From Tilletiaria anomala UBC 951 (lineage: Eukaryota; Basidiomycota; Exobasidiomycetes; Georgefischeriales; Tilletiariaceae), in the NCBI RefSeq assembly GCF_000711695.1, contig NW_013547009.1, positions 62,001-126,000 on the forward strand: a stretch of 64,000 nucleotides of DNA. Reading direction: 5' to 3'. A program made the translations under genes and the position numbers. Shown here piece by piece: positions 24,645 through 32,414 of this stretch (the first letter of the stretch is position 1; each line of letters opens with the position of its first letter). A model generated the notes under the pieces. That model searched no databases. It was not told the origin of the DNA and saw nothing but the letters and a program-made list of their open reading frames with translations.

Positions 24645-27590
24645 ATGTCCGCCGCGGGGCTTCACAAGATGGAATCGCGCAAGTCGCAGCGCTCCGTGCT
24701 CTCCAGCGTATCCCCATTTGTCTCCGGACACGCTCGCGCATCGACCGAGTCGGCAACAATGGATGACGGTAGCAGTAGCAGCAGCAGTTACCCCAACGGG
24801 AGCGCCAACGGCAGCGGCCATGACGGGCGCTCTCGTCCCTCACTCCTCACACGCGCCAAGTCCAGGGCGACCCGCAAGCGCCCTCTGTCCTACGTCCCGA
24901 CCAGCGTGTCCTCCCTGCTTGCAGATCCAGATCCAGAGAGCTTTTCCGACAAGGAGCTCAAGGGCTTCAACGGTGTTTTTCCACAGCCGGAAGAAGGCTG
25001 CCTACCGAAACTGCCGGCACGGCTGACCGAGGAGCAGCAGCACAAGTACCAACAGATCCTGGAGCATTTCCAGGGCGTGAAAGAGTACCCCATCGTGTTG
25101 CCAGACAAGCGTGCGACCGGAAAAGCGGCCGAGACGCGCGCACCGAGCGAATGGGAAAAGATGCGCATGCTGACGCGCGACAGCATGCTGCGCTACCTGC
25201 GTGCGGCCAAGTGGGACGTTGAGGTGGCCAAGAAGCGACTGACGGACACGATTGCCTGGCGCAGAGAGTACGGCGTCGACTCGATCTCGCCGGAGGAAGT
25301 CGAGCCGGAGGCCAAGTGCGGCAAGGAGACCGTGCTCGGTTTCGACCGCCACTGCCGGCCGTTGCACTACATGCATCCGCACAGGAATGACACGGAGGAA
25401 TCCCCGCGCCAGATGCGCTTCGCAGTCTGGATCCTCGAGGCGTGCATTGACATGATGCCGCCCGGCGTCGAACAGCTCGCTTTACTCATCAATTTCGAGC
25501 ACAAGAGTCGCAACCCGACAAGTATCAGCAACGCCAAGCTCATGCTTTACATCTTACAAAATCATTACGTCGAGCGCCTCGGTATTGCGCTTTGTATCAA
25601 TGGTGAGTCCAGCGGGTAAATGGTCGTCGTGCATGCATATTCATTCTTGAGGTCATCCGCAATGTGCTGATCGCGCTTTGGACTCGTTGCCTTGGCAGTC
25701 CCGTGGATCTTCAAGGCCTTCTACAACGCAGTTCAGAGCTTCATCGACCCAAACACCAAAGCCAAGGTCAAGTTTGATGCGAGCATTAAGGATGAGGTAC
25801 CGCTTGCGCAGCTGAGCGGGGACTTGTAAGTGGCCGGCGGGCATGTTAGCAGACCTGCATTCATTTTATTGACCTGTGCTGGGCTTTCTCTTTTAAGTGG
25901 TGGTCAGCTCGACTTTACATATGACCATACAGCCTACTGGCCCGACCTGGTACGCGTCATCAAGGAGCGACGCGAGCAGATGCTGAGCCGCTTTCTGGAA
26001 AAGTGCAATGGTGAGATCGGAGCTGCCGAGTGGGTCATCCGCGGCGGGGAAGATTACGCCGATGCGCCGCTCTCTAAGGAGACGGGGAAGGAGCCCACGA
26101 AGGAGATTGTGCCGGAGAGCTTGCTCACGGGTGGTGCAGCTGCAGATGCCAGCGCCGATGCTGTCGCCCAGACGCCGACGCTGATGGCGGCCCAAGCGCC
26201 AGGCTCAAGCGGTGCGGATCAGGAAGGGCGACAGCAAGCGATCGAAGCTCCACAGATGCGAGAGACACTCTCCGCCTCTGTTTCTGCGGCATGCATCACA
26301 GAACTGGCCACATTGTCCGCCACTGTAGGGTCCACAACGAAGGCCAACGGCCACGCTCAGCAAGCCAGCGGCGATGAACGTGCCGACGGTGGCGCGAATC
26401 TTGCTGCTGCAGGAACTGCTGATGCACACGTAGCAACGCTTGGAGAGAATCGAGGCATGTCCGAGCTGGACCGGACGAGCTCTGTGGTGATGAGCGGTGG
26501 CGAGGTCTTCGCGACGCCGTCCACGACACTCAGCGACAATCCGCTCGAGCGGCAATTCAGCATCGCAACGACCACGGGCACACGGGAGGACGTACAGCTG
26601 GAGAGCACCATCGAAGAGCCCGCTACGATCATAGGGGATGCCATGGTCGTCGCCTCTGGGATTTCGCCTTCGCCGTCCATCTCGGTCGCAGCCACGCCCG
26701 AGACGCCCAAGAATAGCAAGCACCCGTTCATGGAGAAGCTGACCAAGCGCAGCTCCACATCGCCGAGCAAGGAGAACAAGAAAAACAAGCATGATAAGGA
26801 CGACTCGGTCAGCTCTGTCCCTGATCCAGAGACGCCGCGTGATGCGCGACACTGCCTCGGCCACGAGCACGATGATGCTCAGCACCACAGTGGCCAGTTC
26901 AAAGACGGCTTCCAGGACTTTGTCCGCGGGGGCTCGCACTTCTTCAAGAACCTTAAGGCCGGCGTAGCCGGCGTTGGGCTGGGCCATGCAGGCGGCCACC
27001 ATTATAAGCGCGCCGACAGTCGAAACATCAGTGCTGCGAGCACGGTTGTCGGCGAGGATGACAAGAAGCCCCGGCCGCCGTCGTCATCATTACACACCTC
27101 GAGTCCGCGCAAGCAAGGGTCCGCTGATTCGCAGAAGACTTTTCCGATGGCCAATGGCCATGCGCACGGCGCGGATGTTAACGCTGCGGAAGGGGCAGGC
27201 GCGGTGGGCGTAGCAACGGTCAGCGCATCAAAGATCAACGGACACGCACACGAGCCTAACAGCGCGGAGGAGGACTCGTCAGCAACGGTGGCAGCAGCGC
27301 CTTTGAGCGGGAAGACGGTTAAAGTGCTCTATTTTGCTGGCGCACGAGCGGCGATCAAGAAGAGCGAGGAGGACGTCGAGCTGCCCGAGACGCCGTTTGC
27401 ACTGGCGCAACTGACCGCAATGCTGGTGAAGAAGCATGAAAAGGAAGATCTGCTCGGCGATTTCGAGAGGACGGTCAAGGCGTCCAAGTGGAGCGTCGAT
27501 GAAGAGATGGTCGACGTCGAACATGCAGCGTCGACGATGCTCAACGGAGGCGAAGAGGTAGCTGTCATTCCGCCCGTTAGTGGCGGTTGA
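24645..27590 (+). CDS. Sec14 (CRAL-TRIO) protein fused in frame to MoaD/MOCS2A domain
   Basis: Exons 24645-25602, 25699-25825 and 25898-27590 give 925 residues. Residues about 115-385 are a Sec14 lipid-transfer unit: a CRAL-TRIO N helix (MLRYLRAAKWDVEVAKKRL), the lipid-binding core (LLINFEHKSRNPTSIS, VPWIFKAFYNAVQSFIDP, KVKF), and the closing GGQLDFTYDHTAYWP, closest to the Pdr16/Csr1-type fungal subgroup. A disordered linker of about 450 residues rich in Ser, Ala, Gly and His follows. From residue 836 the chain reads VKVLYFAGARAAI and closes with GGEEVAVIPPVSGG directly before the stop, the beta-grasp fold and C-terminal Gly-Gly of the molybdopterin-synthase small subunit (E. coli MoaD, human MOCS2A, Aspergillus CnxG). 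The Gly-Gly carboxyl end becomes a thiocarboxylate that donates sulfur to molybdopterin. No stop or obvious splice signal separates the halves. An in-frame ATG at 27147 could alternatively start a short MoaD-only product. Confidence 0.88.
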
Positions 27591-27872: not shown

Positions 27873-30800
27873 TCACTGCGAATGAACAGGAGCCGACTGG
27901 TGCTGCGGTGGCCGGGCTCCCCCGCGGCCGCCCCGATGGCCTCCGCGGTGTCCCCCACGGCCTCCGCGTCCTCTGCCGGGCTGTTGTCTGCCAGCATGAC
28001 CGTTGCCGAGCCCAGCGTTCAGAACAGCAAGATGAGGGTTGACGTTGGCCTGCGCGCGAGCCTGCGCCTCGCTCGGGCGAGCTCTGCCTGCAGCGACGCC
28101 TGCAAAAGGTGCTTGGGGCGTCACAGTGGCATGAGGCGGGCCTTGGCGCTGTAGCAACCTGACTGGACCTCCGCGTCCGCGTCCGCGAGCGGCTTGCGGC
28201 GCAGGTGTAAATGTACTCGGAGGCTTAACGACGGCTCCGCGTCGTCCTCCAGCAGCCTCCTCGCGCCTGCCTGAGCCCCCAATGTGACCGGCGTGTCCAT
28301 TGGAAGGCGAAGACCCCTGGAGGCTGAGACCGTTGAGAGCACTCAGCGTTCTCTCGAGCGGGTCCTTGGCAGCCTCAATAGTGAAGTCTTTCGTTGTATC
28401 CGTGACGAATTGTGGCATGCTCAGGTTGAGGGCAGAGTGGAAACTAACAGTACCGCCGCGGTAAGGGCTGCACCTTCCTGATAATGTGCTGCCAGATAAG
28501 AAGGGCACATCGAAGACGACATCAATGTTGCTTGTATTGATGCCAACAACGACTCCACGAGCTGCGAGTGGCACGTTGCCACTGTCCTGCACGACGACGA
28601 CACGGTCGCCCAGCCCGAATTTCTGTCCGCGCAGACGGAAAGGCGCATGGTTCGGCTTGATGAGCGCCATACGTGGGATACCTTTGATCACCATGCGCTT
28701 GACACTGGCAGCACCTTGGAGGTTTGATCGCGCTTGTGCCAACCGTTCCGTGAACCCTTCTATCGTCTGCACGACCTCGCGACCAAGCGACTCGGCAAAT
28801 AGAGGCACCGCCTCCAAATCCCGGACACCCTTCTCCTTAATCCACTGCTTCAGTTCCTTCATGCGGCCATCAACAACATTCGGGTCAGGTCCAAAGAATT
28901 GCTGTGCCGACTTCAGGTCGTCTCTGGCATTGTTTTCCAGCCTTTGCATGATCTCCGGGAACGCATTCTTTGCAACGAAGGCCAAGTCAGTGGCAGCGTC
29001 TAGAGTAATGCCTGCTGCAGGAACTCACCTTGAACTCTTTGATGAGCGCCACTGCTCGATCGCTATACTCCCATCCGTGAATGTTCTTGCGACTATACCC
29101 CAGGACTTTTTGACTCTTTGCCTCGAATTTGAGGTTCAACCCCACGTGGACCTTCTGGTCCTTCCACTGAACGAGCATGCTGCTGGTGACCTTAGCCAGC
29201 GTGAGTCCATGCAAGCCGCACATCTTTGCGACGACGTGCGAAGGGTAGAAGACTTCTTCCGTGCGTCGTTCGATGAGACTACGTAGCGCGGCGTTCTCCT
29301 TTGCCTGATTCGAGTAGACTGCCAGCTCGATAGCAAGCGAATCCTTAACAGATCCAACAACGCAGGCTGGCGTACCGTACAAGTCTTTCCCGAGGAAGAA
29401 AGCTTTGGTGCCTGCGGGCAGCTCGTGCCTGACGGGTATGGCGGCTTTTTCCAGGTACCGCTCGTCCTCTTGTACGACTTGAGGCACGGAGAGCTGCAAC
29501 GCCTGGTCGAGCTCTTTCTCCGGGCTCAGTTCGTACTCCTTGATGAACGAGCTGTCCTGCAAGCGCAACAAGCCTTTGAGGGTACGCACGTGCAGCAGCA
29601 TGTCGATTTTGCCAATGATGACACCGTACCTGCGACTGTAGTGCTGCTCGATGCGCTCAGCTTTGCGCCTGAACGCATTAGCCGCCTCGGGCGTATGCGG
29701 ATTCGAGACGATGCGCTTAGTACCGCCGACGGAGGCCATCTCGTAACGGAAGAGCTCGTCGCTGACGCCGACAACAAGTGCCTCGGTCAGGTACGGCCAG
29801 CCGATGAACGTCCGCTGGCCGATCGTCTGCGCCGCCAGGTCTTCTGATTTGGTACCTTCGAATGTATTCTCCACGTGAATGATCATGGAATCATTTCTGC
29901 TCTCGCTCTGGAAGACGCTGACACCGTGGTGGCCGAGCTGGGCAAAGTGCGGGAGTGTCTTAATGCTTGGGAAGCCGGCAAGTGCATTGACACCGAGGTG
30001 CACACCGTCGCAGAGCCCTTGTACAAGGTGCAGTCCGTCGAGCGTGGGTAGATGGAAGTCTAGGATCTTGGCTTTGGAGTGGAGAATGTCTGGAAAGCTG
30101 CCGGGCAGCGAAGAAGGGTGGAAGTATTCGTTGTTCGCATCAAACGAGAATTTGACTGTCGGCCCGAACGAATTGCGGAATTTCTCTTCTGGGCTCAGCA
30201 GGCCATCACGTCGCTCGAGCGCGTCGAGCAGGCGCTTCTCTTCGATGAAGGGGATCTTGACGACGGCCTCCCAATCCTGCTTCTTGCCGTTCAGGTCGGC
30301 CTCAAAGTTGAGCGGGTAGAAGTCGATGAGCGGTGATGTCGGGTCAGTCATTAGGTCGCGGAAAGCCTCGGGGACAAGCATCTTGCTGAGCGAAGGCAGG
30401 ACACCCATCAGCTGTGCAAAAGGCTTGAATGGCTTGCCGAGATCGAAGCTGAATTTCATCGTGCCGATGTCATTCAGGTCGGAGATACGCGGCGCGTAGT
30501 GATAGTCGTAGAACCAACCCCAGGAAGCGACACCGCCATAATAGTAATGTAGGACCCATTGTAGCCCTTCGACGTATCGGTACGCAAGCTGATGCATCTG
30601 CTTCTTGTCGCCAGAATCCAAGCCCATCTTTTCCTTGTAATACTGCTTTTTGGACGCCTCGATCTTCTGGTGCATCTTGCGGCGATACTCATCTTCGATA
30701 TCCGATGAACTACCCGAGTCGGATGCACTGTTGGCGCCCTCCACTTTGGCCTGCTGGTACTTCTTCAGAACGCAGTCGACCGCCGCGGCGCTCTCCGCTG

Positions 30801-32414
30801 CGGCAATCGCATCGCCTCCACCCCCTCCTCCATCATCATCTTCATCGTCATCCTTGTCGATCAACGATGGCAGCTGTGAGACTACCGTGTGCGTTGCGTC
30901 GCTCTCTGGGTCGTAATCGTCAAATGACAGCTTGAGATGGAGACTGGTCACGAGATCCTGCAGGAAGCTGCGATCCGCTTGCGACGCGGTCTTATCGCTG
31001 GGTAGGACGAGCTCCTTGGGAGCGGCGCTCGCTTTGCTGGCGGGCTGCCGCAGCGCAAGCACGAACTGTGCGACCTGCTCGAACAACTTCTTCTGCCCAG
31101 GCGATAGCACCATTTTGCCTTTGGCCTTGGCGCGCTGCACAGCCTTGGTATTGGTATTCTGCACCTTCTTGCTATTCAGCCAGTTGGCATCGCCAAACTC
31201 CTCCTTGAGCTTCTCCAGTTCGAATCTCTTCAGTTCGTCGATGATCATCTCGAGTCGGTCAACGCGCAGCGTGCCCGCTTCATTCAGGTATCCGCCAGCG
31301 CTTGGGAGGATGCGCTTGTAGATACCAAAGAGCAGATTCAGCGCTCCTTCGTTAATGTGCAGATGCGGCAGATGCGGCAGGAAGTCGTTGCCGACAAAGA
31401 TGTTGAGGAGAATGAAATCGTCGATGATGCACTCCAACGAATACTCGAAGGGCAGTGTCGAGCGGATATCTTGGAATTCGAGGTCGAGATACTCGCGGAA
31501 GAGGGAGAGGTGCAGCAAGAAAAAGTTTTGTGACTCCAAACTGAAGTGATGAAAAAGCAGAGATATCAGCATCACCAGAGATTAAATCGCATGTTGCTGC
31601 CGTGGCTATTGCAATTGCTGCTCACCTTCCCTTCGCCTTCTTCCTGGGGCCGAATTGGACCTCTTCACGCAGCAAGCAGAAGTGAGGATCGTGGCTGACG
31701 AGGCCGAGCATGATCAGATCTGCGTCGAGGCCGTAGAGACAATGTCTCGTGTTGGGATTGTATCCAGGCTGCGCCTTGCTGAGGCGGATGTACTCCATGA
31801 TCTTGTGTTCTCCCTCTCCCGGTACGTCGTGCCCAGATAGAACGACAGTGACGTCCCTCCATGTCGAGTCCTCTGTGATCTTCTTTGCGACAAAGTACTT
31901 GAGCTGCAGCGACAAGCGTGTCATGAACGGTGTACCCGGCGTGATCGCGTTCGAGTCGAACGCGTCCTCCTCCGGCAGAACCTCACCCTTACGCAGCGCC
32001 TTTTCCCGCGTCTCCTTCGCCTCCTTGGCGGTCCGGAAGCGGCGGCTGCGCTGCTGATTCATCTTGGCTCGCGGTGCAACGCCATCGATAGCCATGAAGA
32101 AAAACTTCTTGGGCTTGATGATGCTGAAGAGATGCTCAATATATGCGAAGATCGCTAAGAATAAAGCCGCTTCGGACTGTCGGAAGGAGGCATCGTCGTC
32201 GTTGGGATGCGAGCAGTTGTGGATGATGCCGTTCATATCAAGATAGAGGTTGTCGAACTCTGGAATCTTGTTCCCCTCAATCAGCTGGGAGATCAAAGGA
32301 TACCGCTCCGACATGAAGCGGAAGAATTTGGGGATACCTGCGATGGGTTAGATGTGATGAGCTTTCATCCCATTCAACTGCACTCTAGCTCACTCTTCAA
32401 TCGTACTCACCCAT
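27873..32414 (-). CDS. XRN1: 5'-3' exoribonuclease Xrn1
   Basis: Exons 32414-32411 (only ATGG), 32337-31626, 31540-29029 and 28967-27873 give 1440 residues. The first join produces MGIPKFFRFMSERYPLI, the invariant Xrn N-terminus. Active-site blocks follow: LDMNGIIHNCSHPN, AIDGVAPRAKMNQQRSRR, SGHDVPGEGEHKIMEYIR and LDADLIMLGLVSHD, then HLSLFREYLDLEF and NDFLPHLPHLHI. The long second half matches the Xrn1 (cytoplasmic) rather than Rat1 layout, with SH3-like and PAZ/Tudor-like regions and SGRCSPYRGGTVSF. The tail is Arg-Gly-rich (RGRGGRGGHRGGHRGGRGG). Xrn1 degrades decapped mRNA in the cytoplasm. The acceptor of the last exon (AAG at 28968-28970) was chosen because it gives KEFK-NAFPEIM in phase. 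Confidence 0.95.

What the first reader, a model, noticed from the sequence alone, without database searches (positions are those of the whole stretch)
24645..27590. Sec14 lipid-transfer protein fused in frame to a complete MoaD/MOCS2A sulfur carrier
One uninterrupted reading frame links a CRAL-TRIO domain (to about residue 385), about 450 disordered residues and a MoaD domain (836-925) that starts VKVLYFAG and ends EVAVIPPVSGG immediately before the stop. MoaD must have a free C-terminal Gly-Gly for adenylation and thiocarboxylation, and the fusion preserves exactly that. MoaD/CnxG proteins are normally about 80-100 residues and free-standing. The fusion could tether molybdenum-cofactor assembly to a membrane or lipid signal, or the gene could yield a MoaD product by internal initiation (ATG 27147) or proteolysis. 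I know of no described Sec14-MoaD protein, but could not search.
Basis: partly seen in the sequence, partly recalled or inferred. Interest (0 to 1): 0.82.

Follow-up and report, generated by a model that had tools for sequence, protein, structure and literature searches.

The report
Lipid-transfer protein fused to MoaD
In one group of smut-related fungi, the small sulfur-carrier protein needed to build the molybdenum cofactor appears as the tail end of a lipid-transfer protein instead of as its own small protein, and in the one genome searched this is the only copy found, which makes it an unusual and testable link between two pathways.

Summary
The window is from Tilletiaria anomala UBC 951; the spliced three-exon gene equals a deposited 925-aa protein. 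It joins a PDR16/Sec14-type CRAL-TRIO domain, a 422-residue linker and a complete MoaD domain ending PPVSGG at the stop. The last exon is unbroken from the end of CRAL-TRIO through MoaD.

No second MoaD was found in the 18.4-Mb genome, although MoaE, MoaA, MoeA, a ThiF gene and molybdoenzyme domains were. The join is no local error: 23 of 44 PDR16-like relatives end in MoaD with SGG, in five orders of Exobasidiomycetes. Ustilaginomycetes carry the PDR16-like protein without MoaD.

PI-binding residues and Gly-Gly are both kept, so both halves look functional. I conclude this is a real, widely kept fusion that supplies MoaD. Whether MoaD works tethered (favoured) or is cut loose is open, as is whether the fusion arose once. 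No Met is conserved just upstream of MoaD. My full-text searches listed no paper describing it. New variant of a known kind.

The parts
24645..25602 (+). Exon 1: N-terminal low-complexity region, CRAL_TRIO_N and most of CRAL_TRIO
   Evidence: product identical to P0001
25603..25698 (+). Intron 1 (GT...AG, 96 nt)
25699..25825 (+). Exon 2: CRAL_TRIO continued
25826..25897 (+). Intron 2 (GT...AG, 72 nt)
25898..27590 (+). Exon 3: end of CRAL_TRIO, disordered linker, MoaD and stop, without a break
25044..25247 (+). CRAL_TRIO_N domain, residues 134-201
   Evidence: Pfam PF03765
25314..25904 (+). CRAL_TRIO (Sec14/PDR16-type) domain, residues 224-364 (span includes both introns)
   Evidence: Pfam PF00650; nearest solved structures are yeast PDR16
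25572..25574 (+). Glu310, aligned with PI-binding Glu235 of yeast Pdr16
25764..25766 (+). Lys342, aligned with PI-binding Lys267 of yeast Pdr16
26049..27314 (+). Linker, residues 413-834, mostly modelled as disordered; short conserved island around residues 566-582 (FATPSTTLSDNPLERQF)
27147..27149 (+).
27315..27587 (+). MoaD/MOCS2A-like domain, residues 835-925
27582..27587 (+). C-terminal Gly-Gly, immediately before the TGA stop at 27588-27590
   Evidence: SGG end in 23 of 23 fused homologues

Best explanation
The gene encodes one bifunctional protein: a PDR16-type Sec14 phosphatidylinositol-transfer module and, on a long flexible linker, the molybdopterin-synthase small subunit (MoaD/MOCS2A). 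I infer that the exposed C-terminal Gly-Gly is adenylated and thiocarboxylated by a MOCS3/Uba4-type E1 and donates sulfur to cPMP on the separate MoaE, while the Sec14 module stays attached and places part of the pool on lipid-droplet or ER-type membranes. Shown here: the continuous reading frame, recurrence of the fusion and of both active signatures in relatives, and no second MoaD found in this genome. Inferred: that MoaD is active while tethered, and where the protein sits. I think the fusion arose once in Ustilaginomycotina from separate ancestral genes, but the trees do not settle this.
For: One MoaD hit in the genome by PF02597 and by two MoaD queries at E<=10, while MoaE, the MoaA C-terminal domain, MoeA, a ThiF gene that reads like MoeB/MOCS3 and molybdoenzyme domain PF00174 are present. 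23 of 44 PDR16-like homologues end in SGG with a MoaD motif; Pfam ThiS matches 23 of the 34 members of A2, which holds 23 fused and 11 non-fused. PI-binding Glu and Lys kept in 22 of 22 fused rows that cover them. The PDR16-like part is single-copy; other Sec14-type matches are weak, best 5.7e-7. MoaD models at pLDDT 92.8 with a looser C-terminal tail, and the top nine PDB matches by E-value are chains of molybdopterin-synthase or converting-factor entries. The polarity suits both halves: yeast Pdr16-GFP goes to lipid droplets (PMC5748981, passages) and human MOCS2A was used with an N-terminal EYFP in cells (PMC3625234, passages). No conserved Met just upstream of MoaD.
Against: No transcript or protein data. 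The MoaD domain scores below NCBIfam's equivalog cut-off. The rhodanese domain expected of a MOCS3-type E1 was not matched at the ThiF gene on C2 (introns may split it). Linker length and sequence vary widely (201-497 residues in 22 of 23 measured), which would also suit a linker that is cut. Against a single clean origin: in the outgroup-rooted Sec14 tree the non-fused clade is nested among the fused ones (the branch joining Tilletiaria, Tilletia and the non-fused is starred, 99/93), which would mean a later split in Ustilaginomycetes or more than one fusion, though the root is a 3.84-long branch; and the smallest MoaD group holding all 23 fused also holds six free ones (support 74). That EYFP-MOCS2A is active was not tested in the passages I saw. 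Localisation is borrowed from yeast Pdr16.
Confidence: 0.6

Rival explanations
1. The fusion is made as one chain but a protease cuts the linker, releasing a free MoaD and a free Sec14 protein; the fusion only ensures co-expression.
For: The fused MoaD-MoaE protein MoaX of M. tuberculosis must be cut to work (PMC4326299, abstract), and a Deinococcus MoaD-MoaE fusion is cut by a JAMM protease (PMC8832034, passages). The linker is long, mostly modelled as disordered and fast-evolving.
Against: In those cases the cut is needed to free the Gly-Gly end; here the end is already free. The one island that my pattern finds in 18 of 23 fused proteins lies 72-254 residues before MoaD, not at its edge; I did not search for protease sites.
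Confidence: 0.25
2. MoaD is made as a separate small protein from an internal promoter, alternative first exon or internal start such as ATG 27147.
For: ATG 27147 is in frame 56 residues before MoaD; 20 of 23 fused homologues have some Met within 80 residues before MoaD. A Tilletia-like model, P0022, stops about 20 residues short of where its relatives begin MoaD, which could mark an exon boundary.
Against: Those Mets sit at unrelated places (-7 to -78) and 3 of 23 have none within 80 residues; 40 ATGs, the annotated start included, precede 27147 in the spliced mRNA and its -3 base is C. 117 of 120 listed free MoaDs begin with Met, whereas in the fused ones the nearest Met before the domain is 7 or more residues away.
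Confidence: 0.1
3. The MoaD tail has been turned to protein modification (Urm1/SAMP-like conjugation of the Sec14 protein to targets) rather than cofactor synthesis.
For: MoaD shares its fold with Urm1 and SAMP1.
Against: A separate Urm1 gene exists; no other MoaD was found although MoaE and molybdoenzyme domains are present, so cofactor synthesis needs a MoaD; the tail keeps PPVSGG.
Confidence: 0.03
4. Artefact: two neighbouring genes merged by assembly or annotation.
For: Many homologues are unreviewed gene models; P0022 lacks MoaD inside an otherwise fused Tilletia group.
Against: The raw sequence of the last exon is open through both halves with coding-type codon use; the nearest relative, P0002, also reads from just after the CRAL-TRIO domain to MoaD; the same join recurs in 23 proteins.
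Confidence: 0.02

Closest known systems
MoaD/MOCS2A/CnxG, free-standing molybdopterin-synthase small subunit
   Same: Domain, predicted beta-grasp fold, C-terminal PPVSGG; 36-53% identity to the 120 listed free MoaDs and 54% to that of Exidia over the genome match; fold
   Different: Here it is the C-terminal 91 residues of a 925-residue protein, with no start Met of its own
Yeast Pdr16/Sfh3 (Sec14-type phosphatidylinositol-transfer protein)
   Same: Best PDB match over residues 117-423 (4e-57); PI-binding Glu235 and Lys267 equivalents kept
   Different: The matched yeast PDR16 chains are 333-360 residues; here a long tail and MoaD follow
MoaX and other MoaD-MoaE fusions of bacteria
   Same: MoaD inside a longer chain
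   Different: In MoaX the cut falls after Gly82, between MoaD and MoaE, and is needed for activity (PMC4326299, abstract); here MoaD is last and its partner is a lipid-transfer domain
Human MOCS2 bicistronic mRNA
   Same: Unusual expression of a MoaD
   Different: Two overlapping frames giving separate MOCS2A and MOCS2B (PMC9370521, passages); here one frame, one protein

Membership tests
MoaD/MOCS2A | ThiS/MoaD-type beta-grasp domain | tested here: met
   PF02597 above cut-off; model pLDDT 92.8, best PDB matches are molybdopterin-synthase or converting-factor entries
MoaD/MOCS2A | Free C-terminal Gly-Gly | tested here: met
   SGG in 23 of 23 fused homologues, PPVSGG in 22 of 23
MoaD/MOCS2A | Score above the NCBIfam moaD equivalog cut-off | tested here: not met
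   48.3 against 66.15 bits, but full-length 1-80/80 match; the library is made for bacterial and archaeal annotation, and no eukaryotic free MoaD was run as control
MoaD/MOCS2A | Partner MoaE in the same genome | tested here: met
   C14, two pieces; one piece confirmed by hmmscan
MoaD/MOCS2A | Activating MOCS3-type E1 (ThiF plus rhodanese) in the genome | tested here: inconclusive
   ThiF gene on C2; no PF00581 match there among 4 matches
MoaD/MOCS2A | Thiocarboxylation and sulfur transfer to cPMP | not testable with these tools
   needs biochemistry
Pdr16-type Sec14 protein | CRAL-TRIO domain closest to Pdr16 | tested here: met
   PDR16 chains 4e-57 against 1.6e-12 for the next, Sec14
Pdr16-type Sec14 protein | PI-binding Glu and Lys | tested here: met
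   E310 and K342, kept in 22 of 22 fused rows that cover them and 11 of 11 non-fused rows aligned
Pdr16-type Sec14 protein | PI/sterol binding and lipid-droplet location | not testable with these tools
   reported for yeast (PMC4331669 and PMC5748981, passages)
MoaX-type fused MPT synthase | MoaD and MoaE in one chain | tested here: not met
   MoaE is a separate gene on C14

The most novel reading that the evidence does not exclude
In a whole class of fungi the only molybdopterin-synthase sulfur carrier is permanently attached to a PI/sterol-sensing lipid-transfer protein, so that molybdenum-cofactor synthesis is placed at, or gated by, lipid-droplet or ER membrane state. This would be the first obligately lipid-linked MoaD that I know of.
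Probability: 0.25. Interest if true: 0.8.

Novelty: new variant of a known kind. Interest (0 to 1): 0.62.

Why it matters
MoaD is treated as a small free protein that cycles between an E1 and MoaE. Here a group of fungi seems to rely on one carried at the end of a lipid-transfer protein, and kept the join in at least five orders. That asks whether sulfur-carrier chemistry tolerates or exploits a membrane anchor, gives a natural test of N-terminal tethering, and exposes an unremarked link between lipid transfer and molybdoenzymes. It also warns annotators that 'missing' MoaD genes may hide in longer proteins.

Tried and rejected
Considered and rejected: assembly or annotation merge (coding statistics; recurrence); a second MoaD in the genome (none found); a hidden intron between the halves (my narrow donor pattern matched once in exon 3, at 25950, still in the CRAL-TRIO end); internal start at ATG 27147 as a conserved mechanism.

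Weak or inconclusive: the MoaD tree has only 87 columns and does not resolve whether the Tilletiaria pair (P0001, P0002) joins the other fused MoaDs; a single clade of all fused plus Ceraceosorus is not rejected (p-AU 0.408), nor is one that also holds the five Ustilago-like free MoaDs (p-AU 0.453). In the quick tree of all 143 rows the other 21 fused form a group with only P0071 among free ones, but the smallest group holding all 23 fused takes in six free ones (P0071, P0053, P0162, P0091, P0122, P0131; support 74). The Sec14 tree is rooted on a very long branch and flags Tilletiaria, Tilletiopsis and Exobasidium as long rows, so gain and loss cannot be ordered from it. The full-length model is poor (mean pLDDT 52.2, CRAL-TRIO partly low) and was used only for the linker and MoaD. 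No DNA of other Exobasidiomycetes was reachable, so intron positions and codon-level selection in relatives were not tested. The search for the Sec14 part admits only proteins of about 509-1619 residues, so shorter relatives were not sampled.

Dropped rows: P0002 left out of the Sec14 tree (its record lacks that domain); A2 holds 34 of the 44 PDR16-like proteins (23 fused, 11 of 21 non-fused), so the Pfam check and the PI-residue count did not see 10 non-fused ones; the careful MoaD tree used 42 of 120 listed free MoaDs; the quick trees used all 120. One search listed the best 120 of 1955. The taxonomy of nine species was looked up; the class of the other named species is recalled. An earlier count said that all fused proteins end IPPVSGG; P0010 ends ITPVSGG, so it is 22 of 23 for PPVSGG and 23 of 23 for SGG.

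Full report
What the sequence shows. The finding's span reads as a three-exon gene: 24645-25602, 25699-25825, 25898-27590 with GT-AG introns of 96 and 72 nt. The product is 925 aa and is letter for letter P0001, deposited as hypothetical protein K437DRAFT_254528 (CRAL-TRIO domain-containing) of Tilletiaria anomala UBC 951; this names the organism, an exobasidiomycete of the order Georgefischeriales. Pfam finds CRAL_TRIO_N 134-201, CRAL_TRIO 224-364 and ThiS 838-925. The last exon is open from the end of the CRAL-TRIO domain through the linker and MoaD to the stop; the MoaD Gly-Gly are its last two codons. The 1215-nt stretch for residues 430-834 has no stop in frame, against 10 and 14 in the other forward frames; none of 2000 Markov sequences of its composition was stop-free, and of six frames only the coding one has a positive codon-usage score there. 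The join is therefore coding-type sequence, not a chance run-on.

The two halves. The N-terminal half is closest to yeast PDR16 among solved structures (4e-57; the next, Sec14, 1.6e-12). The two PI-binding residues of Pdr16, Glu235 and Lys267 (PMC4331669, passages), align with Glu310 and Lys342 (register read by eye) and are kept in 22 of 22 fused proteins that cover the site and 11 of 11 non-fused ones aligned. The C-terminal half models as a beta-grasp with pLDDT 92.8 and a looser C-terminal tail; the top nine PDB matches by E-value are chains of molybdopterin-synthase or converting-factor entries, human among them. NCBIfam's moaD model matches it end to end, though under its cut-off. The linker is mostly modelled as disordered and measures 201 to 497 residues in 22 of the 23 fused proteins (one not measured). 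A short island of the kind FKTPxxxxxxNPLDRxFS is found by pattern in 18 of 23 fused and 1 of 11 non-fused proteins, 72-254 residues before MoaD.

Is it the genome's MoaD? Three searches of the 18.4-Mb assembly found MoaD only here: PF02597 and two free basidiomycete MoaDs at E<=10. A second copy finely split by introns could escape a six-frame search; neither E<=10 search gave another candidate. The rest of the pathway is present: MoaE as a separate gene in two pieces, the C-terminal domain of MoaA, MoeA, a ThiF gene that reads like MoeB/MOCS3 by eye, molybdoenzyme domain PF00174 on two contigs, and Urm1, the other known client of such E1s. The rhodanese domain expected of a MOCS3 was not matched beside that ThiF gene, which leaves the exact E1 open. 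The PDR16-like part is also single-copy: other Sec14-type matches are weak (best 5.7e-7). So both halves look like the genome's only copy of their kind.

Is it conserved? Homologue searches gave 50 proteins: 44 PDR16-like (one of them, P0002, a record that starts just after the CRAL-TRIO domain) and six CRAL-TRIO/phosphatase proteins used as outgroup. Of the 44, 23 end in SGG behind a MoaD motif and 21 do not. Pfam's ThiS matches 23 of the 34 members of alignment A2, which holds the 23 fused and 11 of the 21 non-fused. Named fused species fall in Georgefischeriales (Tilletiaria), Exobasidiales (Exobasidium), Entylomatales (Tilletiopsis), Microstromatales (Jaminaea, Sympodiomycopsis) and Tilletiales (Tilletia). 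The non-fused are Ustilaginomycetes (Violaceomyces; Ustilago, Sporisorium, Pseudozyma and others, class recalled) and unnamed relatives, 20 rows that group together in the Sec14 tree (85/66), plus P0022, which sits inside the Tilletia group (100/100) and stops about 20 residues short of where its relatives begin MoaD, so is probably truncated. Kalmanozyma, an ustilaginomycete, has a free MoaD, Testicularia a partial model without start Met, and many other basidiomycetes have free ones. One Exobasidiomycete, Ceraceosorus guamensis, has a partial MoaD model without start Met that groups with fused ones.

History. I favour one fusion of two ancestral genes within Ustilaginomycotina. The trees do not prove it. 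Rooted on the phosphatase outgroup, the Sec14 tree nests the non-fused clade among the fused ones, the branch that joins Tilletiaria, Tilletia and the non-fused being starred (99/93); taken at face value this means that Ustilaginomycetes later separated the two, or that fusion happened more than once. The root lies on a branch of length 3.84 and may be wrong. The MoaD trees leave the Tilletiaria pair unresolved.

How it works. MoaD needs a free C-terminal Gly for adenylation and sulfuration, and its N-terminus can carry a large partner: human EYFP-MOCS2A was used in cells with MOCS3, although its activity was not tested in the passages I saw (PMC3625234). Pdr16 tolerates a C-terminal partner: Pdr16-GFP goes to a subset of lipid droplets (PMC5748981, passages). 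The order Sec14-linker-MoaD is the order that leaves both working ends free. Bacterial MoaD-MoaE fusions such as MoaX must be cut at Gly-Gly (PMC4326299, abstract; PMC8832034, passages); here no cut is required. A separate MoaD from an internal start is possible but not supported: Met positions before MoaD are not conserved, 3 of 23 fused proteins have none within 80 residues, and 40 ATGs, the start included, precede 27147 in the spliced mRNA. I therefore favour a tethered, active MoaD, with cleavage in the linker as the main rival. Membrane placement is inference from Pdr16.

Against the reading. There is no RNA or protein evidence; the moaD equivalog cut-off is not reached; the E1's rhodanese part was not found; the linker is fast-evolving as a cut linker would be; the tree of the Sec14 part does not show the fused proteins as one clade; and only the Tilletiaria genome could be searched for a second MoaD.

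In print. Full-text searches for CRAL-TRIO with MoaD (0 papers), Sec14 with molybdopterin synthase (1), Sec14 with MoaD (4), CRAL-TRIO with molybdopterin (1), Ustilaginomycotina with molybdenum cofactor (1) and two wider MoaD/MOCS2A searches (15 of 39 listed) listed no paper whose title or abstract start describes such a protein. I did not read those papers through, and most subscription journals are not held. Of a 2026 phylogenetic study of Mo-insertases I saw passages only; they concern E- and G-domain fusions, not MoaD (PMC13262936). In databases the architecture is visible: 12 of the 23 fused proteins carry precomputed ThiS labels and one source names P0016 a molybdopterin converting factor small subunit.

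Verdict. A real protein fusion, kept across five orders, and a new variant of a known kind of sulfur carrier. It is interesting because the only MoaD found in this genome sits on a lipid-transfer protein; its mechanism is open but directly testable.

Noticed in passing
P0015: A fused protein filed under the fern Adiantum nelumboides sits among Exobasidium-like fungi in the tree, so it is probably fungal contamination of a plant genome.
   Followed up: partly
P0045-P0050: Proteins of Ustilago, Pseudozyma and unnamed sources join a CRAL-TRIO domain to a HAD-type phosphatase (4-nitrophenylphosphatase), another Sec14 fusion in the same subphylum.
   Followed up: no
P0022: A Tilletia-like model ends after PAPALQ, about 20 residues before the point where its fused relatives begin MoaD; this may mark an exon boundary, so Tilletia might splice MoaD on or off.
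   Followed up: partly
window 27873-31575, minus strand: The convergent neighbouring gene looks like the 5'-3' exoribonuclease XRN1 (recalled from its sequence, no search run).
   Followed up: no
P0071: Ceraceosorus guamensis has a MoaD model marked partial and without start Met, grouping with fused MoaDs; it may be the tail of an unrecognised fusion.
   Followed up: partly
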